Of a stretch of 64,000 nucleotides of DNA, positions 13,625 to 38,707 are shown piece by piece. Positions within the stretch are counted from its first letter, which is position 1. Every line of letters starts with the position of its first letter. The position numbers and the translations under genes are program-made. Source of the DNA: Bacillota bacterium (lineage in GTDB: Bacteria > Bacillota_A > Clostridia > Christensenellales > Aristaeellaceae); the NCBI GenBank assembly GCA_023421735.1, contig JAEZSP010000070.1:124001-188000 (forward strand). The letters run 5' to 3'. A model generated the notes under the pieces. That model was not told the DNA's origin and made no database searches. It was given only the letters and a program-made list of their open reading frames with translations.

Positions 13625-13651
13625 CGAAACACCCCTTTCAAATGTGTAGAA

Positions 13652-14440: not shown

Positions 14441-14453
14441 TGAAGCACCGCTT

Positions 14454-16860: not shown

Positions 16861-16889
16861 TTGCCGAATCGCGCGATTCAAGGTACAAT
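16861..16889 (+). promoter_or_regulatory. Promoter of the lactate dehydrogenase gene
   Basis: TTGCCG (16861-16866), 17-bp spacer, TACAAT (16884-16889), 25 nt before the GTG start. It is back to back with the tetR promoter. Confidence 0.62.
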
Positions 16890-16914
16890 GAGAAAAAACA
16901 CAAAGGGTGATCTT

Positions 16915-18017: not shown

Positions 18018-18046
18018 TTGAAATGGAATAATAAGTGTGGTATCAT
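18018..18046 (+). promoter_or_regulatory. Promoter of the oligopeptide import/peptidase operon
   Basis: TTGAAA (18018-18023), 17-bp spacer, TATCAT (18041-18046), 83 nt before the binding-protein start. The rest of the 251-bp gap after ldh holds no gene. Confidence 0.7.
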
Positions 18047-18128
18047 TCAATCATTGACACAGCTCCAACGCAGGACGATTGGGCTGTGTCGTCTCAAATC
18101 AACCGGAAAAAAGATATGGAGGGCGAAC

Positions 18129-19727
18129 ATGAAGAAGTTAGCGGCGATCGTACTGACCCTTATGATGCTCACCGCCTGCGTAAGCGGAATCGCCGAATCC
18201 GGCGACACGACCGTTGTGCGAATCGGCCAGTCCTATGACCCCACCACGCTCGATTACGCGGAGGCCAATCTGGACAGCGCCTCCTTCGTGCTCGCGCACA
18301 CCTCGGAAACGCTCATGCGGGTCACCGCCGACGGTTCCTATGAATGCGCTGCCGCCGAATCCTACGATGTCAACGAAGATTCCACCGTCTGGACATTCCA
18401 TCTGCGCCAGGGCCTGACCTATTCCGACGGAACGACGCCCATCACCGCCGATGACTACTACTACGCCGCAACCCGGCTCATCGACCCCGCACAGGGCCAC
18501 GGCAATGCGTCCTTCAAATGGGTCAACGCAGACGCCTATTACGCCGGCACCGCCTCTCTTGAAGATGTGGGCGTAAAGGTCATTGACGACTACACCATCG
18601 AATATACATTCGTTCATCCCGCCTACGAAAGCTCCTTCACCACAAGCTCCATGTATGCCCCGCTCGAACAGTCCTTCGTCGAAGCGGCGGGCGAGACCTT
18701 CGGCACATCGGCCGAGACCTATCTGGGCAACGGCCCCATGATGGTCTCCGAATGGACGTCCGATGCGAGCCTCACGCTCGTGCGCAATCCCTACTATCGC
18801 GATCCCGCTTCCATCTCCATCGACGAAATCGACATCGTGACCGGCGCGGACGGCGACGTTGGAGTGGACATGATGCTCGCGGGCGAACTCGACATCGCGC
18901 CGCTCAAGACCGCGAACCAGATCATGACGTTGCAGGACAGCGGGGCAAGCATCTTCACCTTCACCAACGGCTATTACGTCCTCAACCTCAATCCCGCGGG
19001 CAAGACCGAGGAATCCGGCAAATTCCTTTCGAATGCCAACTTCAGAAAGGCGCTCTCCCTCGCCATCGACCGTGATGCGCTCCATGCCTCCGTGATGTCG
19101 TCCGTGACGCCCGCCAACCGCCTGACCGCGTCGTCCGAATTCGCCTATTCCTACAACCCGGATTACGTCGCCTGGCCGACCACGGCAGACGCAGCCACCG
19201 CCAAGGAATACCTGCAAAAGGCACTGGACGATCTGGGCATGACAGCCGATCAGATTCCGGTGATCGAGCTTCTGTGCTATGAATCCCAGGGATCCATCGA
19301 CATTCTGAGCGCCATTCAGGACATGCTGCGCACCAATCTCGGCATTGAAACGCTCATCAATCCCCAAACCATTCAGGTCATGATCTCGGACGCCATGTCC
19401 GGAAACTACGACCTGTGGCTGGGTGGCAACGGCGTCAGCATACCGGACGCGTGCGACGGCTACCTCGACGGCTTCTACTCCGTCAACTATTCCCCGCTGC
19501 GCGGCTATCAGGATCCGGACTTCGACGCGCTGTATCTGGCCACCGTATCCGCGCCCACGATCGAAGAGCGCATGACAAATTTCGCGGCGACCGAAGCCTA
19601 CTTCTGCGATCAGGTCATGAACATCGTCCTCGGCTGGCAGGATGCTTCCCTTGCCATTTCCGGCAGCTATACCGGATATTACGCGACCGACACCGGAACC
19701 CTGATCCTCCTCTCCCTCACAAAATAA
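18129..19727 (+). CDS. Oligopeptide ABC transporter substrate-binding lipoprotein (OppA/DppA-like)
   Basis: A 532-residue SBP_bac_5-type protein. The N-terminus is a lipoprotein signal (MKKLAAIVLTLMMLTAC, acylated Cys17). The mature part contains family features such as the ETLMRVTADGSYE and WTFHLRQGLTYSDGTTP segments. It would capture peptides outside the membrane and hand them to the permeases encoded next. GGAGGG is 5 nt before ATG 18129; an upstream in-frame start at 18000 lies before the promoter and is rejected. Peptide length preference cannot be read from sequence, but the peptidases downstream argue for peptides rather than nickel or sugars. Confidence 0.92.
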   Translation: MKKLAAIVLTLMMLTACVSGIAESGDTTVVRIGQSYDPTTLDYAEANLDSASFVLAHTSETLMRVTADGSYECAAAESYDVNEDSTVWTFHLRQGLTYSDGTTPITADDYYYAATRLIDPAQGHGNASFKWVNADAYYAGTASLEDVGVKVIDDYTIEYTFVHPAYESSFTTSSMYAPLEQSFVEAAGETFGTSAETYLGNGPMMVSEWTSDASLTLVRNPYYRDPASISIDEIDIVTGADGDVGVDMMLAGELDIAPLKTANQIMTLQDSGASIFTFTNGYYVLNLNPAGKTEESGKFLSNANFRKALSLAIDRDALHASVMSSVTPANRLTASSEFAYSYNPDYVAWPTTADAATAKEYLQKALDDLGMTADQIPVIELLCYESQGSIDILSAIQDMLRTNLGIETLINPQTIQVMISDAMSGNYDLWLGGNGVSIPDACDGYLDGFYSVNYSPLRGYQDPDFDALYLATVSAPTIEERMTNFAATEAYFCDQVMNIVLGWQDASLAISGSYTGYYATDTGTLILLSLTK

Positions 19728-19735
19728 GACCCATC

Positions 19736-19779
19736 GGGCGCCATCCGCCAAAAACGACGGGCGGCGCCCATTTTATTTC
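19736..19779 (+). terminator. Hairpin and T-rich tract between binding-protein and permease genes (attenuator)
   Basis: GGGCGCC (19736-19742) pairs with GGCGCCC (19763-19769), followed by ATTTTATTTCT. It lies inside the operon. A partial terminator or 3'-end stabilising hairpin here would let the binding protein be made in excess over the membrane subunits, as is usual for such importers. Confidence 0.6.
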
Positions 19780-19790
19780 TTGGAGAACAT

Positions 19791-20720
19791 ATGCAAAGAT
19801 ACATTCTCGAAAAAGTGCTCATCGCGCTTGTCACGGTGTTCGTGCTCGCCACGGCGACGTTTTTCCTCCTGCAACTCATTCCCGGAGACCCGTTTTCGAG
19901 CCTCACGGTGAAGGCGGAAGTGCAGGAGCGGCAGCGTGCATACTATGGGCTCGATAAACCGCTGGGCGTCCAGTATCTGACCTATATGAAGAACCTCGTA
20001 CAGGGCGATCTCGGCTGGTCGCTGAAAAAGACGGGGCGCTCCGTTATCGACATCATCCGGGAAGCCTTTCCCGTCTCCGCGCGGTTGGGGCTGTTTTCGC
20101 TGTTCTTCAGCGAAATCATCGGGCTCACCTTCGGCATCCTATGTGCGCAAAACAAAAACAAGTGGCCTGACTACTTCTTTATGCTGGTGGCTGTGCTCGG
20201 CATCGCCATGCCAAGCATGGTACTCGGCCCCCTGATGCGCTATCTGTTCGGCGTCAAGCTCGCCCTTTTGCCCGTTACGGGTTGGGGTTCGCTGCAAAAA
20301 ATGATCATGCCTGCCTTCGTCCTGGGGTTGGGCACCATCGCGGGCAATACCCGCGCCATGCGTGCGTCGATGCTCGGCGTGATGACACAGGACTATGTGA
20401 CGACCGCACGCGCAAAAGGGCTTTCGTCCGCGCAGGTCGTTCTTCGGCACGAATTCAAAAACTCCCTCATTCCCATCGTCACGGGCCTTGGCATGCAGAT
20501 CGCGGGGATCCTGATGGGATCGTTTGTTGTGGAGAGCATGTTTCTAATCCCCGGCCTTGGCCGCTATTTTGTCGATTCGATCACAAATTTGGATTATCCG
20601 CTCATCATGGGACTGACCATCTTCTTCGGTACGTTCCTGGTAACGTTAAACCTTCTGGTAGACGTTCTTTATGGCTTCATCGACCCGCGCATTCGGGAAA
20701 GCAAGAAGGTGAGAAAATGA
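19791..20720 (+). CDS. Peptide ABC transporter permease (OppB/DppB-like)
   Basis: A 309-residue membrane protein with six hydrophobic segments and the binding-protein-dependent transport EAA loop (RAKGLSSAQVVLRHEFKNSLIP near residue 205). The N-terminus has the OppB-type start (ILEKVLIALVTVFVLATATFFLLQLIPGDPF split across helix 1). TTGGAG precedes the ATG. Its stop overlaps the next permease start (ATGA at 20717-20720). Forms the membrane channel with the next gene product. Confidence 0.92.
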   Translation: MQRYILEKVLIALVTVFVLATATFFLLQLIPGDPFSSLTVKAEVQERQRAYYGLDKPLGVQYLTYMKNLVQGDLGWSLKKTGRSVIDIIREAFPVSARLGLFSLFFSEIIGLTFGILCAQNKNKWPDYFFMLVAVLGIAMPSMVLGPLMRYLFGVKLALLPVTGWGSLQKMIMPAFVLGLGTIAGNTRAMRASMLGVMTQDYVTTARAKGLSSAQVVLRHEFKNSLIPIVTGLGMQIAGILMGSFVVESMFLIPGLGRYFVDSITNLDYPLIMGLTIFFGTFLVTLNLLVDVLYGFIDPRIRESKKVRK

Positions 20721-21646
20721 CGCAACGAGAAACATTCGCGCCTGATGCGTTTGAGCCGGCAACCCGTGCGGCATATCAGGATCCGGCGTCGAGCCGGAAA
20801 AAGACCACCTATTGGAAGGATGTCTGGCGCAGCTTCAAAAAGAACAAGGCGGCCGTCGCGAGTCTATTTGTGGTCTCCATCCTCATTTTCTTCGTGCTGT
20901 TCGGGCCGCTGATGAACAAATTCGACTATCGGACAAATGATTATACGGCCATCAACGAGACGCCAAACGCCGTTCATTGGTTTGGAACCGATACCATGGG
21001 GCGCGACATCTGGACGCGCGTATGGCAGGGCGGGCGCATCTCGCTCTTGATCGCCGTGCTCGCAACGCTGTTTCCGGAAGGAATCGGCATGCTGATCGGC
21101 GGCATTTCCGGCTATTTCGGCGGAAAGGTCGATATGCTCATCATGCGCACGATCGACGTGCTGGTCGGCATCCCGAGTCTCATCTATATGATCCTATTGA
21201 TGCTGGTCTTCGGGAGCGGAAGTGTCATGACGCTCATCATCGCCATTTCGATCACGGGCTGGATGGGCTCTGCGCGGTCGACGCGCGGGTTGGTTTTGCA
21301 GCTGAAAAACCTCGATTTTGTCGTTGCGTCGGAAACTTTGGGCGCGCGACCGATGCACGTCATCTGGAAGCGGCTCATACCCAACACGCTTGGCATCCGC
21401 GTGGTCTCGATCACCATGTCCATCCCCGGCGCGATTTTCTACGAGGCATTTTTGAGTTACATCGGGCTTGGCGTTACCCCGCCCACGCCTAGTTGGGGCC
21501 AGCTCATCAAGGCGGCGGGCGAAAATTTTCGCTATTATCCGTATCAGTTCATCATCCCCTGCCTCATGGTGGGCATCACCATGCTGTCATTCAATCTCAT
21601 CGGCGACGGGTTGCGCGATGCGCTTGACCCGAAGCTGCGGACGTGA
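20717..21646 (+). CDS. Peptide ABC transporter permease (OppC/DppC-like)
   Basis: A 309-residue second permease. A charged cytosolic N-terminus (KKTTYWKDVWRSFKKNK) precedes the first helix, and the OppC-type motif FGTDTMGRDIWTR follows near residue 89. The EAA loop (SETLGARPMHVIWKRLIPN) is near residue 210. The start at 20717 uses the ATGA overlap; an open frame continues upstream inside the previous gene but has no supporting signal. Confidence 0.92.
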   Translation: MTQRETFAPDAFEPATRAAYQDPASSRKKTTYWKDVWRSFKKNKAAVASLFVVSILIFFVLFGPLMNKFDYRTNDYTAINETPNAVHWFGTDTMGRDIWTRVWQGGRISLLIAVLATLFPEGIGMLIGGISGYFGGKVDMLIMRTIDVLVGIPSLIYMILLMLVFGSGSVMTLIIAISITGWMGSARSTRGLVLQLKNLDFVVASETLGARPMHVIWKRLIPNTLGIRVVSITMSIPGAIFYEAFLSYIGLGVTPPTPSWGQLIKAAGENFRYYPYQFIIPCLMVGITMLSFNLIGDGLRDALDPKLRT

Positions 21647-21654
21647 GGTGCGAC

Positions 21655-22680
21655 ATGCGTGAGGTAATCCTCGAAGTCAAGGACCTTGTGGTCACTTTTG
21701 ACATGTATCAGGGCAGCGTGCAGGCCGTGCGCGGCGTGTCATGGCACCTGGGTAAAAAAGAAACCATCGGCATCGTGGGCGAATCCGGCTGCGGCAAGTC
21801 GGTTACGATCAAGACGGCACTCGGCCTGAACCCCAAAAGGAACGGCAGCGTTAAATCCGGCCAGGTGCTCCTGCAGGGAAAGGACATCCTTTCCGCAACC
21901 GATCGGGAAATCCGCGACATCATGGGCAACAAGATGTCCATCATCTTTCAGGACCCCTTCACCTACCTCAATCCCACCATGACCGTCGGAAAACAGATCA
22001 TGGAGGCCTATCTGCGCCACCACAGGGCCACAAAGGCGGAGGCACGCGCACGGGCCATTGACATGCTGCGGCTTATCTCGCTCCCGAATCCGGAAGAAAA
22101 CCTCAGGCGCTATCCGCATCAGCTTTCGGGCGGCATGCGCCAGCGCATCATGATCTCCATGGCGCTCATCTGCGGCCCTATGGTGCTCTTTGCGGACGAG
22201 CCGACCACCGCGCTCGACGTGACCATACAGGCCCAAATCGTCGACCTGATGAACTCGCTCAAGGACAAAATTGACACGTCCATCGTCCTCATCACGCACG
22301 ATATGGGCGTCGTCGCCAATATGGCCGACCGCATCTATGTGATGTACGCGGGACAAATCGTCGAGCACGGCGACGCGGACGCCATTTTCCATCACCCGCG
22401 CCACCCCTATACCTGGGGGCTGCTCGACAGCGTGCCGCGCCTGGACCGAAAGACAGCGTCGGAGCTGCACTCCATTCCCGGCATGCCCCCCGACCTGATC
22501 GCGCCGCCGCCGGGCTGCGCGTTCGCGCCGCGCTGCCGATTTGCCATGAACATCTGCTCCGCACGCACGCCGCAGAAAATCGATTTGGACGAAGCCGGTC
22601 ATTTTGCGGCTTGTTGGCTGTGCCACCCGGAGCGTGTGGCGCAATATGGTGCGGTAAGGAGGCCTGAGACGAATGGCTAA
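21655..22680 (+). CDS. Peptide ABC transporter ATP-binding protein (OppD/DppD-like)
   Basis: A 341-residue ATPase: Walker [10 protein letters not shown] near residue 42, signature LSGGMRQR near 157, Walker B LFADEPTTALD near 180, and the C-terminal oligopeptide-family segment with spaced cysteines (CAFAPRCRFAMNIC near 288). ATG 21655 is preferred over an in-frame GTG at 21643 that overlaps the upstream stop. The gene overlaps the next by 8 nt. Confidence 0.93.
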   Translation: MREVILEVKDLVVTFDMYQGSVQAVRGVSWHLGKKETIGIVGESGCGKSVTIKTALGLNPKRNGSVKSGQVLLQGKDILSATDREIRDIMGNKMSIIFQDPFTYLNPTMTVGKQIMEAYLRHHRATKAEARARAIDMLRLISLPNPEENLRRYPHQLSGGMRQRIMISMALICGPMVLFADEPTTALDVTIQAQIVDLMNSLKDKIDTSIVLITHDMGVVANMADRIYVMYAGQIVEHGDADAIFHHPRHPYTWGLLDSVPRLDRKTASELHSIPGMPPDLIAPPPGCAFAPRCRFAMNICSARTPQKIDLDEAGHFAACWLCHPERVAQYGAVRRPETNG

Positions 22681-23635
22681 ACCCCTGCTGGAACTCAAAA
22701 ACGTCTCCACGCACTTCAAGGTACCGCGCGGGACACTCAAGGCGGTCAATTCCGTCAGCCTCACGATTGAGCCCGGCGAAACGCTCGGCCTCGTGGGCGA
22801 GTCCGGATGCGGAAAATCGACGCTCGGAAAAACCATACTGCGGCTCTATCGCCCGGAAACGGGCGAGGTGCTCTTCGAAGGCGAAAACGTGTGGCAGTAT
22901 GGCAGAAAACAGCGACGCAACTACACCCAGAATGTGCAGATGATCTTTCAGGATCCCTATGCGTGCCTCGATCCGCTGTCCGTCGTTGGCGACACGGTGG
23001 CCGAGGGCATGGACATTCACAGGATGAATGAGAACCGGGCGGCGCGCGGACAGGAAATCATGCGGCTCCTTCACCAAGTTGGCCTCAACGAGAGCCATGT
23101 CGACCGCTTTCCCCATGAATTTTCAGGCGGGCAGCGGCAAAGGATCGGCATCGCGCGCGCGCTGGCGGTGAAGCCAAAGCTGATCGTGTGCGACGAGCCC
23201 ATTTCGGCGCTTGACGTTTCGATTCAGGCGCAGGTCGTGAATCTGTTAAAAAGGCTTCAACGCGAAATGGCGCTTTCCTATTTGTTTATCACGCACGATC
23301 TTTCGATGGTACGACAGATTTCAAACCGCATTGCGGTGATGTATCTGGGTTCCATCGTCGAAATTGCGGACAGCGAGGATATCTACCTCAAAAACAGACA
23401 TCCGTATACCCGCGCGCTCCTATCAGCCATTCCGATCGCCGACCCAGCCGTCGAGCGCGCGCGCGCACGAATCACGCTCACAGGCGACGTGCCGAGCCCG
23501 GTCAATCTGCCGGAGGGCTGTCATTTTGCGGGGCGATGCCCCTACGCGGACGATACCTGCCGACGCGTCGCGCCGGAACTGCGACTATTCGAGGCGGGAC
23601 ACCAGGTGGCCTGCCATAAAGCAGAATCCATGTAA
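22673..23635 (+). CDS. Peptide ABC transporter ATP-binding protein (OppF/DppF-like)
   Basis: A 320-residue partner ATPase: Walker [10 protein letters not shown] near residue 43, signature FSGGQRQR near 150, Walker [10 protein letters not shown] near 175, and a second oligopeptide-family C-terminal Cys segment ([14 protein letters not shown]). With the previous gene it completes a five-subunit peptide importer. It is followed after 12 nt by the first peptidase gene, which starts with AAGGAGG, so import and hydrolysis are probably co-expressed. Confidence 0.93.
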
Positions 23636-23647
23636 GGAGGAAGGCAT

Positions 23648-24970
23648 ATGCGCGTTTTGCCCGGAGGAGCGGACACCCTGCATGCCCAAGCCGTCCTGCC
23701 CGATTTCCGCGCGCTTTGTGAGGAAATCCTGCTCGGCGAGGATCACCCAGAGGCAAGCGTCGTCGGGTTTTCCTATCTGAAAAATGGCGGCGCGGCAAAC
23801 CGCCCCGTGCTGTTCGCATTCAACGGCGGCCCCGGCTCGTCGAGCCTGTGGCAGCACATCGGTTTTCTGGCGCCGTGGCGAGTCCATCTGACCGATCCGG
23901 TCGATCCCTCTCCCCTGCCGCCCTACGGAATCGAGGAAAACCCGCACAGCCCGCTGGACGTCTGCGATATTGTGCTCATCGACCCGCCGGGCACGGGGTA
24001 TGCCAGGCTTCTCGATCCCGCAAAGGGAGAGACGTATTTCAATGTGGACGGCGACGCGCGCGCCATCGCGCTCTTTATCAAGGATTGGCTGATCCGGCAC
24101 GATCGGGTCAATGCCCCGCGCTATCTTGCGGGCGAAAGTTACGGCACCTATCGCATGCCCTATGTCGTGCGCGAGCTGATGGGCGGGCCGATGACGGCGG
24201 GACACACGCTCGAGGGTTTCTCGGTCAACGGCCTCTTCATGCTTGGGCTTGCGTTTCTGAATGCGCCGCCCTTCCCTGCCGCCGCCATACATCTCCCCGC
24301 ATACGCATGCGTAAACCATTACCACAATCCGGCGGGGAAGCCGCCGTTGTGTGAATGGAAGGAGCAGGCTTATGCCTTCGCGGGCGAATACCTGCATGCG
24401 TTTTTCTACGGGGACGCTGCGCGGCTGGAGAGCGAATTCCGGCATTATTCGGGCGTGCCGAGCGCAGAAGTGGAACGCTTTTCCAAAGCGCTCCTTGCGG
24501 ACAGGGGGCTGGACGTCGGCATATACGACGCCCGCTACACCATGCCGCACGCGGAAATGGGCGATCCGGTTGCGGATGATCCCGCAATGGGCAAGTATAC
24601 CGTTCCATTCGTCGGCGCATGGGAAACACAAATGAAGCAAAAGCTCGGCATCGAAACGGCGCGCGATTACCGTGCGATCGATTTTACGGTCAACGGCCGC
24701 TGGCAATACGAATCCCAATTTGGCATGAAGCCGGACGAATGCCTGAAGCTCGCGCTCAGACGCAATCGGGACATGAAGGTACTGATTGGAACCGGTGTAT
24801 ACGACCTGCAAACCGACATCGGCAACGCGCGGTATGTCGCCGCGCATCTCGGTTTTTCGGATCGGGTCCTGGTGCGCGAATACGAATCCGGGCACATGCC
24901 CTACATCGGTGAAGAAAGTGCGGCGGCGCTCGCAAAGGATATCAGGAATCTGATCGGAGAGAAGCTATGA
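23648..24970 (+). CDS. Serine carboxypeptidase-like hydrolase, peptidase family S10 (copy 1)
   Basis: A 440-residue alpha/beta hydrolase with S10 hallmarks. The oxyanion segment FNGGPGSSS lies near residue 58, the nucleophile elbow GESYG holds Ser164, and a probable Asp386 (GVYD) and His416 (ESGHMP) complete the triad. S10 enzymes remove C-terminal residues from peptides. It has no signal peptide, unlike the secreted or vacuolar eukaryotic enzymes, so it should act on imported peptides in the cytosol. Its TGA overlaps the start of the S9 peptidase (ATGA). Confidence 0.87.
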   Translation: MRVLPGGADTLHAQAVLPDFRALCEEILLGEDHPEASVVGFSYLKNGGAANRPVLFAFNGGPGSSSLWQHIGFLAPWRVHLTDPVDPSPLPPYGIEENPHSPLDVCDIVLIDPPGTGYARLLDPAKGETYFNVDGDARAIALFIKDWLIRHDRVNAPRYLAGESYGTYRMPYVVRELMGGPMTAGHTLEGFSVNGLFMLGLAFLNAPPFPAAAIHLPAYACVNHYHNPAGKPPLCEWKEQAYAFAGEYLHAFFYGDAARLESEFRHYSGVPSAEVERFSKALLADRGLDVGIYDARYTMPHAEMGDPVADDPAMGKYTVPFVGAWETQMKQKLGIETARDYRAIDFTVNGRWQYESQFGMKPDECLKLALRRNRDMKVLIGTGVYDLQTDIGNARYVAAHLGFSDRVLVREYESGHMPYIGEESAAALAKDIRNLIGEKL

Positions 24971-28843: not shown

Positions 28844-28853
28844 CGGAGGCACC

Positions 28854-30467: not shown

Positions 30468-30472
30468 TCAGC

Positions 30473-31864: not shown

Positions 31865-33252
31865 GTCAAATTCACCTGCCCGAGCCCTTTTCCATCGGGG
31901 CGTTTGCCCCGGCGCGCTTTGAGGCCGCACATGAGATCAATCTGGAAACCGGGTCATGCCGGTTCCGGACGATTGCGGAGGATTGCGTGTTCACGGCGCC
32001 GGACGGCGCGCGCGAGGCATCCATCTTCTCCATCTCCTACGTCGGAACGGGCGAACGGCGCCCGGTGATGTTCATCTGGAACGGCGGGCCCGGCTCCGCA
32101 ACGTCGATGCTGCACCTCGAATGCTTTGGCCCGTGGCAGATCGCGCGCGATGAAAACGGCGCGAAGCAATATGGACTCGTCGAAGACCCATCCTGCCTTC
32201 TCGACGTATGCGATCTTGTGTTCGTCGATCCGGTCGGCGTGGGCTATTCGCGGCTCTTGGATCCCACAAAGGCGGGCAAATACGACTGCGTGGACGGGGA
32301 TGCGCGCAGCGTGGCGTTTTTTATGACCGAGTGGCTCCGGCGGCACGACCGCTGGGACAGCCCGGTTTACGTCTGCGGCGAGAGCTACGGCACCGTGCGC
32401 GCCTGCCGTGTGCTGGCGGAGCTCGGGCGCTCGCCCTATTCCGAGAGCCGGATGGTTCTGGGCATCCCGGTTGCGGGGGTAATCCTCGTCGGACTCGCAA
32501 CGGAAGAGGACAGCGACGACCCCATCGTCTATATGATGCCCGCGATGGCCGCGACCAACTGGTACCACCACCAGAAGGGAAAGGGCAAGCAGGACGACTT
32601 TGTACACGACGCATGGGAATTCGCGCGCATGCGCCTTTTGCCCGCGCTGTTTGACGGCGCCTTTTGTCCGGACGCGGAGCGCAGGGACGTGGCTGAACGC
32701 CTTCAGTACTACACGGGCGTTTCTGCGGACTACTTCATCAAGAGCAATCTGAAGATCGGTTCCCCGCGCGAATTTTTGACCCGCTGCGTGCCGGGTGATC
32801 TACTCGATCTCTACGATACGCGCATGAAAAAGCCCATCTCGGATGTGACGGGCGATCTAGACGACGGGAATGTGCCAATCAAGGTGATGAATTCCCTCCT
32901 GGCAAAAAAACTGAACGTCGATATGCCCCGCCTTTATTACACGGGAAACATCAACATCAACATTAGGTTCAACTGGACGACCGAGGAAGTCGATCCCGCG
33001 TTCAAGAAGACCCACCTTGGTTGCCTGCGCGCGGCGATGAAATCAAACCGAGACATGCGCGTGCTGTTCGCCTCCGGACTTTACGACGCGTGTACCCATG
33101 CCGGCCTGACGCGCCACGCGGTCAGCCATGCAGACCTTCCCATGGAGCGTGTGACCATGCGCGAATACAAAGGCGGACACGGGGTCTATTCTTCGCCCGC
33201 CGGCAAAGCGGCGTTCCTCGCGGATGTGCGTAAGATGATCGCAAATCGATAA
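31861..33252 (+). CDS. Serine carboxypeptidase-like hydrolase, peptidase family S10 (copy 3)
   Basis: A 463-residue S10 protein: WNGGPGSAT near residue 73, Ser175 in GESYG, probable Asp409 (GLYD) and His440 (GGHGVY). It is the last gene of the first plus-strand block. The following 85 nt hold no clear terminator before the converging regulator gene. Three S10 genes in one operon, all without secretion signals, is very unusual for a bacterium. Confidence 0.85.
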   Translation: MSQIHLPEPFSIGAFAPARFEAAHEINLETGSCRFRTIAEDCVFTAPDGAREASIFSISYVGTGERRPVMFIWNGGPGSATSMLHLECFGPWQIARDENGAKQYGLVEDPSCLLDVCDLVFVDPVGVGYSRLLDPTKAGKYDCVDGDARSVAFFMTEWLRRHDRWDSPVYVCGESYGTVRACRVLAELGRSPYSESRMVLGIPVAGVILVGLATEEDSDDPIVYMMPAMAATNWYHHQKGKGKQDDFVHDAWEFARMRLLPALFDGAFCPDAERRDVAERLQYYTGVSADYFIKSNLKIGSPREFLTRCVPGDLLDLYDTRMKKPISDVTGDLDDGNVPIKVMNSLLAKKLNVDMPRLYYTGNININIRFNWTTEEVDPAFKKTHLGCLRAAMKSNRDMRVLFASGLYDACTHAGLTRHAVSHADLPMERVTMREYKGGHGVYSSPAGKAAFLADVRKMIANR

Positions 33253-33337
33253 AAGCCGTCCATGAGAGATGCTGCGGAATGCGGCGCAACGCAGGGACCA
33301 AATGCGGTCGAGGAGTGGGTTCAATCGCGATGAAGCG

Positions 33338-34573
33338 CTAAAACTTCGTTTCCAAATAGAAGCGGCGAATGTGAATGGCAATCTGCAGGTCAAAAAGCCG
33401 TGCGGCATCATCCAGCGAAAAACCCAGGAGTGCCTCGGCCCGCGCGAGCCGCGATTGGAGCGTATTGCGGTGCAGGTACATCTCCTTTGCGGTCTTGAGC
33501 TTGTTCATCCGGCAATCGATAAAGCAGATGAGCGTATCAAAAATTTCCCCGTCGTGCGCTTCGTCATAGGCGAGGATCGCGTCCAGATAGCGCGCCGCGA
33601 ACTCCTTTGCCGCGTCCACGGCCGGAATTTCGAACAGAAGCTGGTAAAAGCCCAATTCCGCATAGGAGATCATGCGGGTCCCCGGCCGAAGCGTATTCGC
33701 CATGAGGCTGCGCCGCGCCTGTATAAACGAAGTACGGATGCCCGAAAGCGTGGGATATTTCATGCCCTTGCCAATTAGAAAATGTGCGCCGGGGTACTGG
33801 GACTCAAGATCCGCGCGTGACGCGCACAGAAAGTTTTCCACGGACGCTTCCTGCTCCGGCGCATCGACCGGAAACACGAATACGTTCTCGCTGCCGATGC
33901 CAAAGTGCCACGTGCGGTCGGTGTAGTTGGTCAAAAGGAAGTTGACCTTCATTGCCAGCATGCGGAAAAACTCGGTGTGGTTCTGGCTCAGATGATCCGT
34001 CGTGCCGAGTATGCGCTCGAAATAGTCGTCCGCATTCATGAACTGCATAATGTACACCCGGTATTGGCAATTGGGGAGATACCCGAGATACAGAGCGCGG
34101 TTGAGCGTGGCATAATCCTCCGTGTCTGCCTGCTCAAGGAAAAGCGAATACCAGAACTCCGTGCCGTCGCGCGGCATGCGACCGTTTTGAATCAGGTGGA
34201 TGATGTCCTTTGTGATGGAGTTCACATAGGCGCGCGACGTAATGGTGAACACCGGAAACCCAAGCGAATCCGCACAATGGATGAGCGCGTCGTCAATGGA
34301 TGTCTCGGTGATAAAGTGCTCGCCAACCAGAAGCAGAATCGCCGCAGCGCGGTTGGCAGCACCCTCTCGAATGAGTTCGGTCAAATCGACGCTTTCTACA
34401 AACTGGTTCGCGCCGTAATAAATCAAAAACTCGCCGCCGCTGATCCAATCGGAAATTGGCGGGCACAAAATGACGTAGGGCCACGTAACGGCGTTTGTCA
34501 GGCCCCGCGCGCCGCCCACCAACCGCATGTCGGCAAGCGACGGCAGCGTGAGCAAATCCTTGATTTCGGTCAT
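33338..34573 (-). CDS. PucR-family transcriptional regulator
   Basis: About 411 residues. It has an N-terminal PucR domain (KDLLTLPSLADMRLVGG then a ...WISGGEFLI segment), a middle region, and a C-terminal HTH_30 helix-turn-helix (LKTAKEMYLHRNTLQSRLARAEALLGF). PucR-type proteins usually activate purine or amino-acid catabolic genes in response to a metabolite. It lies inside the peptide island, facing the dipeptidase-like gene across 74 nt, so it probably controls one or both blocks. The ATG at 34573 has GGGAG 6 nt upstream and suits the promoter position; ATG 34597 would fall at or before the transcription start. Confidence 0.85.
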   Translation of the reverse strand: MTEIKDLLTLPSLADMRLVGGARGLTNAVTWPYVILCPPISDWISGGEFLIYYGANQFVESVDLTELIREGAANRAAAILLLVGEHFITETSIDDALIHCADSLGFPVFTITSRAYVNSITKDIIHLIQNGRMPRDGTEFWYSLFLEQADTEDYATLNRALYLGYLPNCQYRVYIMQFMNADDYFERILGTTDHLSQNHTEFFRMLAMKVNFLLTNYTDRTWHFGIGSENVFVFPVDAPEQEASVENFLCASRADLESQYPGAHFLIGKGMKYPTLSGIRTSFIQARRSLMANTLRPGTRMISYAELGFYQLLFEIPAVDAAKEFAARYLDAILAYDEAHDGEIFDTLICFIDCRMNKLKTAKEMYLHRNTLQSRLARAEALLGFSLDDAARLFDLQIAIHIRRFYLETKF

Positions 34574-34598
34574 GGATGTCTCCCATTGTTTTTTCATT

Positions 34599-34627
34599 AT
34601 TGTACCTTCCCGCACGAGCAAACGCAA
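34599..34627 (-). promoter_or_regulatory. Promoter of the PucR-type regulator
   Basis: On the minus strand TTGCGT (34627-34622), 17-bp spacer, TACAAT (34604-34599). It lies in the 74-bp gap shared with the divergent amidohydrolase gene, so regulator binding could affect both. Confidence 0.6.
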
Positions 34628-34647
34628 GCGGGAGAAAGTGAGCTTTT

Positions 34648-35871
34648 ATGAAGATTCTGTACGGCAGACTCATCGATTCCGTCTCCGACGCACCCATCGA
34701 AAGCGGCATGCTGGCCATCGACGGCGATACGATCGCCTACGCAGGCGTGCGCGGGGGATTCCCCGTCCCGGAGGATGCCGAAATCTGGGAGATCGAAAAC
34801 GGCACGATCCTTCCCGGCTTCATCGACGCACACGCCCACTTTGCGGGCAGCGAAAGCGTAAACAAAAGCGGCGATACGCCTTACGACCTCCTGCTCACCG
34901 CGGCATGCGACCTTTCGGATCTCGTGGACGCGGGGTTCACGGGCGCACGCGAAATGTCGGCGTTCGGCAGGCCGCTGCGGGACGCGGTCAACAAAGGCAG
35001 TCTCAAGGGGCCGCGCATCATGGTCGGCGGGAAGGTTCTGAGCATTTCCTCGGGGCATTGTGATTTCGAACCGAATCTCTCCATCGAAGAATCAAACGAA
35101 AAATCGATCATTTCTTACATCATGGACGGCCCGGAAGCCTGTCTGCGCGGCGTGCGGGAACAATTCCGCGCGGGCGCGGAGTTCATCAAAATCTGCGCGA
35201 CGGGCGGCGTTTCCTCCGCCATCGACGATTACAATGATCAGGAATTTTCCGAAGAGGAGTTAACCGTCATCATCGGCGAAGCAAAGCGCCACAACACATA
35301 TGTCGCCGCCCATTGCACGGGCACGGCGGGTACCAAGGCCGCGCTCAAAGCGGGCATCGGCTGTGTGGAGCACGGTGTAATGCTCGACGAGGAATGCTGC
35401 GAAATCATGCGGCAAAACGGCGTACCGCTCGTGACCACGCTGAGCGTCTCGCTCGGGCTTTCGGACATGAAGGGGCTGCCGGAATTCATGATGGAAAAGG
35501 CGCGCGGCATTCGCGGCTGCTCCATGCGCTCATTCCAACTCGCCCACGAATACGGCATCATGGTCGCGCTGGGCACGGACTACTCAAATTCGCCCAACAC
35601 CCCGTTTTCCGAAATCGGCAAGGAATTTTATAGCCTGACGCGCTGCGGCTATACGCCCATGGAGGCGATCAAGGCGGGGACCATCAACGGCGCAACCCTC
35701 ATGAAGCGCGCCGATAAAGTCGGCACGCTGGAAAAAGGAAAGCTCGCGGACGTAGTGCTGGTCGCGGGCGACCCCATTTCAGACATTAAACTGCTCGCGG
35801 ATTCCAAAAACGTAAAACTCGTTTTCATCGGCGGAAAAATTCAAAAGGACACAACCGGAGGCCGGATATGA
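34648..35871 (+). CDS. Amidohydrolase-family metallopeptidase (Xaa-Pro/Xaa-Lys/Arg dipeptidase-like)
   Basis: A 407-residue amidohydrolase-superfamily enzyme with a full binuclear metal site: His62 and His64 (AHAHF), probable carboxylated Lys181 (FIKICATGG), His222 (AHCTG), His242 (EHGVM) and Asp311 (LGTDYS). This residue pattern is that of the amidohydrolase dipeptidase subgroup, which cleaves Xaa-Pro or Xaa-Arg/Lys dipeptides. Its position after six peptidases favours a dipeptidase role, though other amide or lactam ring hydrolases share the fold. The ribosome binding site is weak. It overlaps the next gene by 4 nt. Confidence 0.82.
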   Translation: MKILYGRLIDSVSDAPIESGMLAIDGDTIAYAGVRGGFPVPEDAEIWEIENGTILPGFIDAHAHFAGSESVNKSGDTPYDLLLTAACDLSDLVDAGFTGAREMSAFGRPLRDAVNKGSLKGPRIMVGGKVLSISSGHCDFEPNLSIEESNEKSIISYIMDGPEACLRGVREQFRAGAEFIKICATGGVSSAIDDYNDQEFSEEELTVIIGEAKRHNTYVAAHCTGTAGTKAALKAGIGCVEHGVMLDEECCEIMRQNGVPLVTTLSVSLGLSDMKGLPEFMMEKARGIRGCSMRSFQLAHEYGIMVALGTDYSNSPNTPFSEIGKEFYSLTRCGYTPMEAIKAGTINGATLMKRADKVGTLEKGKLADVVLVAGDPISDIKLLADSKNVKLVFIGGKIQKDTTGGRI

Positions 35872-36812
35872 CAATCATCGAAGCGGATCAGGTGCGCGCG
35901 CTCCTCACGCCCGAAGTATGCATTACCCTCATGCGCGATGCGCTGACGGGACTTGAGGAAGGGCGCTATGCGCAGCCCATGCGGCTGATTACCACCATGC
36001 CCAATACGGCGAAGTTCGGATTCATGCCCGCCTATGTGGGCGACTACTTTGGCGCCAAGGTCATCTCGGCCTATGCGCCCAACATGGGCACAAAATATCC
36101 CTCCCACATCGGGTACGTAATGCTCTTTGAGTCCGCGCACTCCACGCTCGCTGGCATGATCGAGGCTGGCACGATCACCCAGATCAGAACCGGTGCGGTC
36201 AGCGCGCTGGCGACCGACCTGCTTGCGCGCAAAGACGCGCAGACCATCGCCTTGATTGGTGCGGGCGCGCAGGCAAGGTCTCATCTGGCGGCGATCCGCA
36301 CGGTGCGAAAGATCACATCTGCATCCGTGTTTGACATCAGCCCCGAAGCGGCGGCGCGCTTCAAGGCCGAAATGGAAAAAACCTACGGCATCCCGGTCGC
36401 GGTGTGCACATCCGTCGCGGATGCCGTGCGGAACGCGGAGATCATCTGCACCGTATCGCCCGGCAAGGAGCCGGTTCTGTTCCGGGATATGGTCAAGCCG
36501 GGGACGCACATCAACGCGGTGGGCACGTTCAGTCCCACGACGCGCGAAGTGTCGAGCGACCTGGTGGTCGCTTCCCGTCTCTACGCCGATCAGGTGGAAG
36601 CCATGAAAAAGGAAAGCGGCGAGTACCTCGCGCCGCTGCAGGAAGGCTTGATCGCGGAAGACCATATCGTAGGGTCCATCGGCCAGCTGGCACTGGGCAA
36701 TATTTCGGGGCGCATCGGGCGCGACGAAATCACGTTGTTTGACGCGCTGGGACTCGCCATCGAGGATGTTGCGAGTGCAAAATACGTGTACGAGGCACAC
36801 CAAGGAGCATAG
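35868..36812 (+). CDS. Ornithine cyclodeaminase/mu-crystallin family protein
   Basis: A 314-residue NAD(P)-dependent enzyme with the family cofactor motif GAGAQARSHL near residue 129 and the N-terminal substrate half (MRLITTMPN, then a conserved Lys in FGAKVISAY). Relatives convert ornithine to proline, reduce cyclic imines such as pyrroline-2-carboxylate, or dehydrogenate alanine. Here it presumably handles an amino acid or cyclic imino acid released from the imported peptides. ATGA overlap with the amidohydrolase gene. Exact substrate unknown. Confidence 0.85.
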   Translation: MTIIEADQVRALLTPEVCITLMRDALTGLEEGRYAQPMRLITTMPNTAKFGFMPAYVGDYFGAKVISAYAPNMGTKYPSHIGYVMLFESAHSTLAGMIEAGTITQIRTGAVSALATDLLARKDAQTIALIGAGAQARSHLAAIRTVRKITSASVFDISPEAAARFKAEMEKTYGIPVAVCTSVADAVRNAEIICTVSPGKEPVLFRDMVKPGTHINAVGTFSPTTREVSSDLVVASRLYADQVEAMKKESGEYLAPLQEGLIAEDHIVGSIGQLALGNISGRIGRDEITLFDALGLAIEDVASAKYVYEAHQGA

Positions 36813-36813
36813 A

Positions 36814-37995
36814 ATGCAGTCAACAGAAACGATATACGACTTCGAAACCCCCGTGCGGCGCAGACCGTCGAACATGAAATATGCCCTCACCGATCCGGCG
36901 GTTCTGCGCGCGGGCAACGAAAGCTTCGACGGCGCGGAGCCGGACTTCAAGACCGCACCCGCCATCGAGCGCGCGGTGATCGCGCTTGCAAAGAACGGAC
37001 TTTATGGTTTCACCATTCTTGACAAGGTCTATCAGGATGCAGTGTGCTGGTGGATGAAAAACAGCCGGAACGTAGAGATCAGCCCGGAATGGATCGTTCC
37101 GACGCTGGGCGTGATCCACGCGGTCGCAACCGCAATCCGTCTTTTCACGCAGGAAGGCGAGGGGATTGTGGTGCTTTCCCCCGTCTATAACCGCTTCAGT
37201 CAGGCGGCGACGCGGCTTTTGCGCACGACGACCACATGCGATCTCAAAATCGAAAAGGGACGGTATGAGATCGATTTTGCCGCGCTCGAGGATGCGCTGC
37301 GCATCGAGACCAACAAGCTGCTCGTGATTTGCAACCCGCAAAACCCCATCGGGCGGATATGGACGATGGACGAGCTGTCGCGCATCGCGGCGCTCGCCGA
37401 AAAATACGGCGTAGCGATCTTCTCGGACGAAATCTTTGCAGACAACACATACGGCGGGCGCACATGCCCCTGTTTTCTCGATGTGCCGGGCGCAAAGGCG
37501 ATCGTCGCGACATCCCTCGGAAAATCGTTCCACTTTACGGGCGTGAACCACGCAAACATACTCATCGCCGACGACGCGCTGCGCGCGCGTTTCATCGACC
37601 GCCGCACGCGCGACCATTTCGGCTCCATCGATCCCCTTGTGTACGAATCGGTCGTTGCGGCCTACACCCCCGAGGGGCTCGATTGGCTGCGCGCCGCAAA
37701 CGCCTATACGCAGGAAAACATCGCCCTCCTGAAGGCCTTTTTTGCGCGCCGCCTCCCGGACGTGCCGGTGTACGGCGGCGAGGGCGCATACCTTCTGTGG
37801 ATGGACTGGAGAAGGATGTTTGCGTCGGAGACTGCGCTCCTGGACTTTCTCTTTCACAAAGCGTATTTCCATCTCGACGCAGGCAGCCATTACGGCGCGG
37901 AACGATTTACGCGCATGTGCGTCGCCTCGCCCCGCTGGAGCATTGAAAAGGCGCTCAACACGCTCGAACGGGCACTCGATGAGGAGGACTTATGA
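36814..37995 (+). CDS. PLP-dependent aminotransferase / C-S lyase (MalY/PatB family)
   Basis: A 393-residue fold-type I PLP enzyme. An early segment (RRRPSNMKYAL) resembles MalY/PatB, the cofactor-binding CNPQNPIGR is near residue 172, and the PLP-lysine is in SLGKSFHFTG near residue 236. MalY/PatB enzymes cleave cystathionine, cysteine and S-conjugates to pyruvate, ammonia and a thiol; aminotransferase activity is also possible. AAGGAG is 9 nt before ATG 36814, which follows the previous stop by one base. Fits breakdown of sulfur amino acids from peptides. Confidence 0.84.
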   Translation: MQSTETIYDFETPVRRRPSNMKYALTDPAVLRAGNESFDGAEPDFKTAPAIERAVIALAKNGLYGFTILDKVYQDAVCWWMKNSRNVEISPEWIVPTLGVIHAVATAIRLFTQEGEGIVVLSPVYNRFSQAATRLLRTTTTCDLKIEKGRYEIDFAALEDALRIETNKLLVICNPQNPIGRIWTMDELSRIAALAEKYGVAIFSDEIFADNTYGGRTCPCFLDVPGAKAIVATSLGKSFHFTGVNHANILIADDALRARFIDRRTRDHFGSIDPLVYESVVAAYTPEGLDWLRAANAYTQENIALLKAFFARRLPDVPVYGGEGAYLLWMDWRRMFASETALLDFLFHKAYFHLDAGSHYGAERFTRMCVASPRWSIEKALNTLERALDEEDL

Positions 37996-38552
37996 GACTG
38001 GTCGTGATCTTCGGACCCCTTGCGGTCGGCAAAATGACCGTCGGTCAGGAGCTTTCGAAGCTGACGGGACTTCGGCTTTTTCACAACCACATGACGATCG
38101 ATCTGGTCGCCAATTTCTTCAGCTACGGCACAGACGAAGGCCGCAGGCTCGTGCGCCTGTTCCGACGCGAAATCTTCGAGGCGGTCGCAAAAAGCGACCT
38201 CCCCGGGATGATCTTTACCTATGTCTGGGCGTTTGATCAGCCGGAGGACAGGATTTATCTCGAAAAAATGTGCGCGCCGTTCATAGAACGCGGCGCGGAG
38301 ATCGACTATGTGGAACTCGAAGCGGACTACGGCGTGCGTCTCGCGCGCAATACCACCGAAAACCGGCTTGCCAACAAACCCACCAAGCGCGACATCGCAT
38401 GGTCGGAGAACAATTTCAAGCGCACGGAAGCGAAGTATCGCCTGAACTCACTGCCCGGCGAGGTGGATTTCCCGCATTTTATTCGCATCAACAATACGGA
38501 TTTATCGCCGCAAGAGGCCGCGCGGCAGATTCAAGAGGCCTTTTCGCTTTAA
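37992..38552 (+). CDS. P-loop NTPase/kinase-like protein
   Basis: A 186-residue protein with a Walker A at residues 8-16 (GPLAVGKMT) and the size of small-molecule kinases such as shikimate, gluconate or chloramphenicol kinases. No lid or acceptor motif that I recognise fixes the substrate. ATGA overlap with the MalY-type gene and the terminator just after it place it as the last gene of the peptide island. It may phosphorylate a product of the pathway or protect against a toxic one. Confidence 0.7.
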   Translation: MRLVVIFGPLAVGKMTVGQELSKLTGLRLFHNHMTIDLVANFFSYGTDEGRRLVRLFRREIFEAVAKSDLPGMIFTYVWAFDQPEDRIYLEKMCAPFIERGAEIDYVELEADYGVRLARNTTENRLANKPTKRDIAWSENNFKRTEAKYRLNSLPGEVDFPHFIRINNTDLSPQEAARQIQEAFSL

Positions 38553-38553
38553 G

Positions 38554-38593
38554 GCAGCCCCGCACAACGGCAGCACGCGGACGGCTGCTTTTT
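38554..38593 (+). terminator. Intrinsic terminator of the peptide island
   Basis: GCAGCC (38554-38559) with GGCTGC (38583-38588), reinforced by CCGC/GCGG inside, followed by TTTTT. The remaining 114 bp to the next gene contain nothing recognisable. Confidence 0.8.
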
Positions 38594-38707
38594 CGCCAAC
38601 TGCTCCTTGCAAAAATCGCGATTGTCATTCCGTCAACCTTCGATTTCTGCATGCCCCTGACAAAAATCCGCACGTCATCGCTCCACTTCATTTTGTGTGG
38701 TGCCACC

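What the first reader, a model, noticed from the sequence alone, without database searches (positions are those of the whole stretch)
18018..38593. Twenty-kilobase peptide import and complete-degradation island
A full Opp/Dpp-type importer (five genes) is followed without a visible terminator by S10, S9, S9, M14, S10 and S10 peptidases, then, past a PucR-type regulator, by a dipeptidase-like amidohydrolase, an ornithine-cyclodeaminase-family enzyme, a MalY/PatB-type lyase and a P-loop kinase-like protein. Seen directly: gene order, overlapping start/stop codons, catalytic motifs, absence of signal peptides on the hydrolases. Inferred: one pathway that takes in peptides, trims them from both ends in the cytosol and converts special residues (proline-like, sulfur-containing). 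The number of different hydrolases suggests unusual substrates, such as proline-rich, modified or antimicrobial peptides, rather than general nutrition. I know of no described system with this composition.
Basis: partly seen in the sequence, partly recalled or inferred. Interest (0 to 1): 0.8.

Follow-up and report, generated by a model that had tools for sequence, protein, structure and literature searches.

The report
Peptide-import island with sulfur-cutting enzyme
A Clostridia-like chromosome carries a 20-kilobase set of genes that takes in small peptides, chops them up inside the cell and probably cuts a carbon-sulfur bond in one of their building blocks; much of the same set, reshuffled, turns up in other Clostridia, so it looks like a real pathway that I could not find described.

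Summary
In detail: five importer genes, six peptidases, then, past a PucR-type regulator, an amidohydrolase (AHS), an OCD/mu-crystallin-family reductase (OCD), a PatB-like PLP enzyme and a P-loop protein. The gene order was not seen again, but the gene set was. Of 8 sampled genomes with a close AHS, 7 carry a complete Opp importer and a PatB-like gene beside it; 0 of 6 distant-AHS controls do, though three control contigs are short. Starting from OCD, 5 of 397 genomes matched and all 5 have a PatB-like gene within about 15 kb. The core is thus importer + amidohydrolase + PatB-like enzyme + an imine-handling enzyme (OCD, or RidA in three loci of one family). S9, S10, M14 and M61 peptidases vary; that family has none. 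Best reading: a dedicated pathway that imports peptides with an S-substituted cysteine, hydrolyses them and beta-eliminates the sulfur residue, like the scattered body-odour pathway of Staphylococcus hominis. The proline reading loses ground: no proline racemase-family gene in 7 of 7 relatives. The PatB-like proteins tested stay under the curated PatB cut-off, and the substrate is inferred. Real, conserved, new variant of a known kind.

The parts
16888..17877 (+). L-lactate dehydrogenase, immediately upstream of the importer; possible pyruvate sink, membership in the unit uncertain
   Evidence: NCBIfam L-LDH-NAD 353.2 bits, cut-off 303.55 (given as 16894-17877); an L-LDH gene also lies beside the G1016 island, L044:3655-4608. 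Start codon chosen by eye.
18018..18046 (+). promoter-like match upstream of the importer operon
   Evidence: TTGAAA-17-TATCAT, 10 of 12; 11 such sites found against 7.5 expected in the region, so weak
18129..19727 (+). Opp/Dpp-type solute-binding lipoprotein (SBP)
   Evidence: SBP_bac_5 219.1 bits (on a longer ORF); RBS and ATG, N-terminus MKKLAAIVLTLMMLTAC
19791..20720 (+). OppB-type permease
   Evidence: BPD_transp_1 143.8 bits
20717..21646 (+). OppC-type permease
   Evidence: BPD_transp_1 and OppC_N (on a longer ORF)
21643..22680 (+). OppD-type ATPase
   Evidence: ABC_tran, oligo_HPY
22673..23635 (+). OppF-type ATPase
   Evidence: ABC_tran, oligo_HPY
23648..24970 (+). S10 serine-carboxypeptidase-like protein, S10a
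   Evidence: Pfam 41.6 bits; triad; 38-41% identical S10 in the G001 and G1063 islands
24967..26976 (+). S9 peptidase (prolyl oligopeptidase/acylpeptide hydrolase type), S9a
   Evidence: Pfam 121.6 bits; triad; best PDB sequence match 8wt1
26969..28843 (+). second S9 peptidase, S9b
   Evidence: Pfam 103 bits; triad
28854..30467 (+). M14 zinc carboxypeptidase
   Evidence: Pfam 124.7 bits (on a longer ORF); aligned with carboxypeptidase T; HxxE...H...E read by eye
30473..31864 (+). S10-like protein, S10b
   Evidence: Pfam 21.1 bits, cut-off 21.9 (on a longer ORF); triad kept
31861..33252 (+). S10-like protein, S10c
   Evidence: Pfam 40.7 bits; triad; 57% identical S10 in the G1016 island
33338..34597 (-). 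PucR-type regulator, divergent from the AHS operon
   Evidence: PucR 74.3 bits, HTH_30 65.1 bits
34648..35871 (+). amidohydrolase of the dipeptidase/N-acyl-amino-acid carboxypeptidase kind (AHS)
   Evidence: Amidohydro_1 176.2 bits; metal ligands H62, H64, K181, H222, H242, D311 invariant in 11
35868..36812 (+). OCD/mu-crystallin-family NAD(P)H imine or ketimine reductase (OCD)
   Evidence: PF02423 244.2 bits; Phe221 where alanine dehydrogenase 1omo has Asp
36814..37995 (+). PatB/MalY-like PLP enzyme, putative C-S beta-lyase (PatB)
   Evidence: TIGR04350 263.6 bits, cut-off 340 (on a longer ORF); PLP lysine K237 and N174, D205, Y125 invariant in 8 island members
37992..38552 (+). small P-loop protein, role unknown, no match in the other islands at the thresholds used
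   Evidence: ORF; no Pfam match, no NCBIfam match; no blastp match
38553..38594 (+). possible terminator (GGCAGCC...GGCTGC then TTTTT)
   Evidence: read by eye; outside the stretch scanned

Best explanation
The island encodes a dedicated cytosolic catabolic pathway for peptides that carry an S-substituted cysteine or a similar thioether residue. The lipoprotein-dependent Opp-type importer brings oligopeptides in. The S10 and M14 enzymes trim from the C-terminus and the S9 enzymes from the N-terminus; relatives use an M61-like enzyme as well. The amidohydrolase splits the last dipeptide or N-acyl amino acid. The PatB-like enzyme then beta-eliminates the freed residue to a thiol plus 2-aminoacrylate/2-iminopropanoate. 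That reactive imine is handled by the OCD-family reductase (to alanine or a cyclic amino acid) or, in islands without it, hydrolysed by RidA to pyruvate, which a neighbouring lactate dehydrogenase could take up. The PucR-type protein controls at least the AHS-OCD-PatB operon. Shown here: gene content, two-run layout, conserved catalytic residues, absence of a hydrophobic N-terminus on the hydrolases, and recurrence of the core set. Inferred: substrate, order of steps, C-S lyase activity, the OCD reaction, regulation.
For: 7 of 8 genomes with a close AHS carry complete SBP-OppBCDF plus a PatB-like gene (40-60%) beside it, against 0 of 6 distant-AHS controls. The reverse search from OCD gives a PatB-like gene (36-60%) within about 15 kb in 5 of 5 matching genomes, out of 397 searched. 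RidA-type genes with the arginine needed for imine hydrolysis are in three islands of one family, all without OCD, while the seven OCD-bearing loci, window included, show no RidA on the stretches searched. RidA hydrolyses imines made by PLP enzymes and clusters with their genes (PMC4433059, abstract and passages). PatB active-site residues are kept. In homologue lists, S10c-AHS, S10c-PatB and AHS-PatB share 11, 10 and 14 contig lengths (the window's own contig left out), against chance means of 0.33-0.66.
Against: All 7 PatB-like proteins tested (window and six relatives) score below the PatB curated cut-off (263.6 for the window, 203.0-329.5 for the others, cut-off 340), so C-S lyase activity is not secured. 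No feature identifies the thioether substrate. The OCD/RidA alternation rests on few lineages (RidA in one family only), and G210 has neither. G939 has the AHS with neither importer permeases nor PatB on its 7.3-kb contig. G962 has OCD, PatB and importer but only a different amidohydrolase, and G800 has no Opp importer on the stretch fetched. The loci are related, so the independent lineages are fewer than the counts.
Confidence: 0.5

Rival explanations
1. A proline-rich or hydroxyproline-rich (collagen-type) peptide pathway: S9 enzymes and S10 cut at proline, the amidohydrolase is a Xaa-Pro dipeptidase, and the OCD-family enzyme is a delta1-pyrroline-2-carboxylate reductase.
For: AHS best NCBIfam match is Xaa-Pro dipeptidase (276.7 bits, cut-off 500) and best PDB match 2qs8, so named. 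OCD best PDB match is the pyrroline-2-carboxylate reductase 6t3e. OCD-superfamily proline-ketimine reductases lie near peptidase and transporter genes in some Bacilli (PMC4113996, passages).
Against: The curated cut-offs are not reached. The 3-hydroxyproline route needs a dehydratase of the proline racemase superfamily, and PF05544 had no match in 7 of 7 relatives (these may be incomplete, three of the seven bear OCD, and the window's own genome is not held). The PatB-like enzyme, with no obvious use for proline, accompanies OCD in 5 of 5 genomes found through OCD, and three islands without OCD keep it.
Confidence: 0.15
2. General peptide nutrition: a broad importer with a generous peptidase set, and PatB/OCD as ordinary amino-acid catabolism for cysteine, cystine and alanine.
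For: Each enzyme class is broad; Opp importers commonly take diverse peptides and amino-acid fermentation is usual in Clostridia (both recalled).
Against: The set is rare (AHS at E <= 1e-90 in 2 of 398 phylum genomes and 4 of 391 class genomes) and yet keeps PatB, an amidohydrolase and an importer together in shuffled order, which suits a specific substrate better.
Confidence: 0.25
3. The PatB-like enzyme is not a lyase but an aminotransferase or cyclising PLP enzyme that makes a cyclic ketimine, which the OCD/mu-crystallin-type reductase then reduces; the substrate would be a diamino or lanthionine-type residue.
For: OCD aligns with the ketimine reductase mu-crystallin (2i99, 4bv8) and lacks the Asp that 1omo has, in 4 of 4 island OCDs aligned. 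The GntC cyclodehydratase family is second-best for all 7 PatB-like proteins tested. OCD is accompanied by a PatB-like gene in every OCD-bearing genome examined.
Against: Three islands have RidA and no OCD, which suits release of an acyclic imine better; the PatB lyase family is the best match in each of the 7 by a wide margin.
Confidence: 0.1

Closest known systems
Staphylococcus hominis body-odour pathway (peptide transporter, dipeptidase PepV, PatB cysteine-S-conjugate lyase)
   Same: Peptide uptake, intracellular dipeptide cleavage, then a PatB-type lyase acting on the freed cysteine conjugate (PMC7385124 passages; PMC11742315 abstract and start of introduction).
   Different: [quoted passage not shown] here importer, hydrolases and a PatB-like gene form one island, with an ABC importer, an amidohydrolase, and OCD or RidA. 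The lyase activity is not shown here.
cog1228-type amidohydrolases (Xaa-Pro dipeptidase, arginine carboxypeptidase Cc2672, ochratoxinase; metallo bile-salt hydrolases are a wider relative)
   Same: Same family and metal ligands; members release a C-terminal amino acid or taurine from an amide (PMC13081902 abstract and passages). That 2qs8, 3feq and others belong to cog1228 is recalled.
   Different: Island members are separated from six distant homologues with support 1.000; below the curated Xaa-Pro dipeptidase cut-off; no hydrophobic N-terminus in the window's protein.
OCD/mu-crystallin family (ketimine reductases, pyrroline-2-carboxylate reductase, archaeal alanine dehydrogenase)
   Same: PF02423 over its cut-off; near full-length alignment.
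   Different: Lacks the Asp seen in alanine dehydrogenase 1omo; below the cut-offs of all 13 NCBIfam families listed.
Genome-neighbourhood unit of 3-hydroxyproline dehydratase with OCD-type reductase, peptidases and transporters
   Same: OCD-superfamily reductase beside peptidases and a transporter (PMC4113996 passages).
   Different: No PF05544 match in 7 of 7 relatives; a PatB-like gene is the partner instead.

Membership tests
Opp/Dpp peptide ABC importer | SBP family 5, two permeases, two ATPases with oligo_HPY domain in one run of genes | tested here: met
   permeases also
Opp/Dpp peptide ABC importer | curated NCBIfam cut-off for a named peptide importer subunit | tested here: not met
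   every hit listed for the five subunits is below its cut-off (for OppD and OppF the best 25 of 185 and 189 hits were listed), so the ligand is not assigned
Peptidase family S10 | Pfam cut-off | tested here: inconclusive
   S10a 41.6 and S10c 40.7 over 21.9; S10b 21.1 under
Peptidase family S10 | Ser-Asp-His triad | tested here: met
   S175, D409, H440 invariant in 18; that these are the triad is recalled
Peptidase family S9 | Pfam cut-off and Ser-Asp-His triad | tested here: met
Peptidase family M14 | Pfam cut-off | tested here: met
   zinc ligands read by eye
PatB C-S lyase (TIGR04350) | curated score cut-off 340 | tested here: not met
   263.6 for the window; 203.0-329.5 for six relatives; four more island PatBs not tested. 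Called PatB-like for this reason.
PatB C-S lyase (TIGR04350) | PLP-binding lysine and neighbouring PLP-contact residues | tested here: met
   K237, N174, D205, Y125 invariant in 8; roles recalled
PatB C-S lyase (TIGR04350) | C-S beta-elimination activity | not testable with these tools
   needs enzyme assay
Xaa-Pro dipeptidase (NF051886) | curated cut-off 500 | tested here: not met
   276.7 bits
Metal-dependent amidohydrolase | HxH, Lys, His, His, Asp metal ligands | tested here: met
   invariant in 11, aligned with 2qs8, 3be7 and others; the same six kinds of ligand are described for the family in PMC13081902
Ornithine cyclodeaminase proper / archaeal alanine dehydrogenase | active-site Asp (as in 1omo) | tested here: not met
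   Phe221 in the window, Phe in 4 of 4 island OCDs aligned; the role of the Asp is recalled
Hydroxyproline/proline-ketimine pathway | proline racemase-superfamily gene (PF05544) in the genome | tested here: not met
   0 of 7 relatives; 3 of 14 control genomes matched, 1 over the cut-off; the relatives' completeness is not told and the window's own genome could not be searched
RidA imine hydrolase (three relatives) | conserved arginine | tested here: met
   CAAR in 3 of 3 proteins, matched by eye to the arginine described in PMC4433059

The most novel reading that the evidence does not exclude
The islands are the first dedicated, gene-clustered pathway for catabolism of thioether-containing peptides in Clostridia, for example glutathione-derived Cys-Gly conjugates of drugs and diet or lanthionine-type peptides of competitors, coupling import, dismantling, C-S cleavage and direct imine capture by an OCD-family reductase that replaces RidA.
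Probability: 0.3. Interest if true: 0.8.

Novelty: new variant of a known kind. Interest (0 to 1): 0.58.

Why it matters
PatB-type lyases release odorous and bioactive thiols from cysteine conjugates, yet in the best-studied case they are described as standing outside any amino-acid gene cluster. A rare, reshuffled but persistent gene set that ties a PatB-like enzyme to its own importer, amidohydrolase and imine-handling enzyme would show which bacteria do this on purpose and would give a genomic marker for it. The apparent alternation between RidA and an OCD-family reductase would also suggest a new way for cells to dispose of 2-aminoacrylate.

Tried and rejected
S10 as the marker of the system: S10 profile A1 matched 10 of 398 phylum genomes. 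In the 9 besides G001 the stretches fetched held no other island gene except one ABC ATPase at 31% in L021; six of these nine contigs are under 13 kb, so absence is not proven. S10 was dropped as the core.

Close S9 homologues in genome contigs: one locus only, the Lachnospiraceae MAG that opened the comparison.

SBP ligand: the Asp that binds the peptide N-terminus in OppA (recalled) seems replaced by Ser in the window, but a DxNDP-type motif is kept in the G001 and G1063 SBPs, and the structure model was too poor to use (mean pLDDT 56.9). No conclusion drawn. The second structure job and the fold searches were not used.

Bile-salt hydrolase reading of the amidohydrolase (PMC13081902): considered because of the shared superfamily; no support beyond that.

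Literature: searches. One search (six terms, four required) found 0 papers; one search found 5, none on such an island by title and start of abstract. Only open-access papers are covered.

More relatives: order of G577 (33 genomes), order and family of G210 (8 genomes; 1 genome) and family of G577 (32 genomes) added none.

Weakness of the controls: three of the six control contigs or stretches are shorter than 17 kb (7.2, 8.6 and 16.3 kb) and three of the six hold an aminotransferase with a partial 26-31% match to PatB; one holds an ABC ATPase at 27%.

Errors of mine: the G1016 AHS was read on the wrong strand with X at stops; that tree is void for AHS and one search replaces it. In some searches the SBP and PatB references began one codon early. 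In some searches some ORFs were longer than the likely genes.

Full report
What is there. Pfam and ORF analysis confirm every gene class in the finding, with coordinates refined. Importer and peptidases form one tight run from 18129 to 33252, with gaps between -8 and +63 bases. The PucR-type gene lies on the opposite strand (33338-34597), convergent with that run and divergent from a second run AHS-OCD-PatB-P-loop protein (34648-38552), with 50 bases between the two starts. So the layout suggests two operons, with a regulator beside the second. The hydrolases have no hydrophobic N-terminus, the SBP has a lipoprotein-type one. Catalytic residues are kept in the S10, S9, amidohydrolase and PatB-like proteins. 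Terminator-like matches in the region are near the chance level (28 against 21.1, sd 5.0). The finding is a real gene set and not a reading artefact.

Where it comes from. No genome is held for the window. The closest homologues of S10c and AHS that bear a family name are from Aristaeellaceae (63% and 72%), so an Aristaeellaceae-like host is likely; this is an inference from names given by sources. The other genomes used below are unnamed except G001 (Lachnospiraceae MAG).

Does the neighbourhood recur? The S9a protein led to one Lachnospiraceae MAG locus (L001) in which the same kinds of gene stand in another order: OCD, M61-like, S10, S9, S9, AHS, SBP, OppBCDF, YheO-type regulator, PatB. I then used AHS as the probe. 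At E <= 1e-90 it matched 2 of 398 phylum genomes (7 at 1e-60), 4 of 391 class genomes, 3 of 299 family genomes and 2 of 8 genus genomes; the samples overlap and the distinct genomes are eight: G001, G1063, G1016, G939, G210, G577, G706, G637. Searches of small families and orders added none. In 7 of these 8, a complete SBP-OppBCDF importer and a PatB-like gene (40-60%) lie beside AHS. The eighth, G939, has on its 7.3-kb contig only an ABC ATPase at 30% besides AHS. As controls I fetched the six loci with more distant AHS (34-36%) from the same phylum search: 0 of 6 has importer permeases or a PatB-like gene above 31%; three of them are on short stretches (7.2, 8.6 and 16.3 kb), and three hold a partial 26-31% aminotransferase match. 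Fisher's test gives p = 0.005 with G939 counted as a failure, but the loci are related: G001/G1063 share a genus and G577/G706/G637 a family, so about four lineages are independent. The controls branch apart from the nine island and G939 AHS with support 1.000.

Independent reverse test. Starting from OCD instead, 5 of 397 genomes of G001's family matched at E <= 1e-60, with six matches: G001 and G1016 again, and three new ones, G800, G962, G1176. All five have a PatB-like gene (36-60%) within about 15 kb of an OCD. G1176 carries two OCDs, AHS (47%), importer, PatB, two S9 and an M61-like gene. G962 has OCD, importer, PatB and a different amidohydrolase. G800 has PatB, another amidohydrolase (26%), an M20 peptidase, an MFS transporter, an M61-like stretch and OCD, but no Opp importer within the fetched 34 kb. 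So the importer and the peptidases can be exchanged, while PatB with OCD, and some amidohydrolase, stay.

Close relatives. Lists of the nearest homologues of S10c, AHS and PatB share contig lengths: 11 (S10c-AHS), 10 (S10c-PatB), 15 (AHS-PatB, of which one, 344,042, is the window's own contig, leaving 14), and 3 in all three lists (8,766, 16,791 and 239,734 bases), against chance means of 0.33-0.66 with maxima of 4-6. A contig of 8.8 kb holding all three suits the S10c-to-PatB spacing in the window (6.1 kb). Contig identity is inferred from equal length; I could not open those contigs.

What varies. The G577/G706/G637 family has PatB, importer, RidA and AHS, with no S9, S10, M14 or M61 match on the stretches examined. 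S9 pairs are in G001, G1063, G1016, G210 and G1176, each with at least one M61-like gene; the M61 domain itself is weak (20.9-28.0 bits, cut-off 22, four tested). The window has M14 and no match to these M61-like or YheO-type proteins. S10 is in the G001, G1063 and G1016 islands. Regulators differ: PucR in the window, YheO-type or GntR-type in relatives.

How it probably works. PatB-like enzymes point to beta-elimination of an S-substituted cysteine. RidA in three islands, with the arginine needed for imine hydrolysis in 3 of 3 (PMC4433059, passages), fits release of 2-aminoacrylate. The islands with OCD show no RidA (window, G001, G1063, G1016, G800, G962, G1176) and the three with RidA show no OCD; G210 has neither. 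The RidA side is one family, so support is thin. OCD has Phe where alanine dehydrogenase 1omo has Asp, in 4 of 4 island members aligned, and its best PDB matches are pyrroline-2-carboxylate reductase and ketimine reductase/mu-crystallin, so an imine reductase role is likely and ornithine deamination is not. AHS has the metal site of amidohydrolases that release a C-terminal amino acid. An L-lactate dehydrogenase stands next to the importer in the window and next to the G1016 island, a plausible sink for pyruvate. These steps are inference; no activity is shown.

Against it. All 7 PatB-like proteins tested fall below the curated PatB cut-off, AHS below the Xaa-Pro dipeptidase cut-off and OCD below all listed. 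The proline rival is weakened by the absence of PF05544 in 7 of 7 relatives and by the constancy of PatB, but not closed. General nutrition remains possible.

Known relatives. The nearest known pathway is body-odour formation in Staphylococcus hominis: uptake of a Cys-Gly conjugate, dipeptidase, PatB (PMC7385124, passages; PMC11742315, abstract). Those authors report no dedicated transporter or peptidase and PatB genes outside amino-acid operons. The present islands would be a clustered, dedicated version. Searches of open-access papers found no description of it by title and start of abstract.

Noticed in passing
L001:2027-4839; L049:10791-13576; L046:5997-7298: TldD/PmbA-type metallopeptidase genes flank the island in G001 and G1063, and one lies directly beside AHS in G939; such proteins are known for processing modified peptides (recalled).
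   Followed up: partly
window 16888-17877 and L044:3655-4608: L-lactate dehydrogenase genes above the curated cut-off stand next to the island in the window and in G1016.
   Followed up: partly
window 18129-19727, residues around 430-440 of the SBP (alignment A2): The Asp that contacts the peptide N-terminus in OppA (recalled) appears to be Ser in the window's SBP and is also not seen in the G1016 and G577-family SBPs, but a D-x-N-D-P motif is kept in G001 and G1063.
   Followed up: partly
L064:8255-11678: G1176 carries a second OCD (51%) between two amidohydrolase genes (47% and 31%) divergent from the importer operon.
   Followed up: no
window 12836-16144: A minus-strand ABC-2 type transporter: ATPase and a permease gene by Pfam, followed by two further ORFs with N-termini similar to each other.
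   Followed up: no
window 45384-47087: A 567-residue ORF with an APH phosphotransferase domain in its first half and no Pfam family over its cut-off in the second.
   Followed up: no
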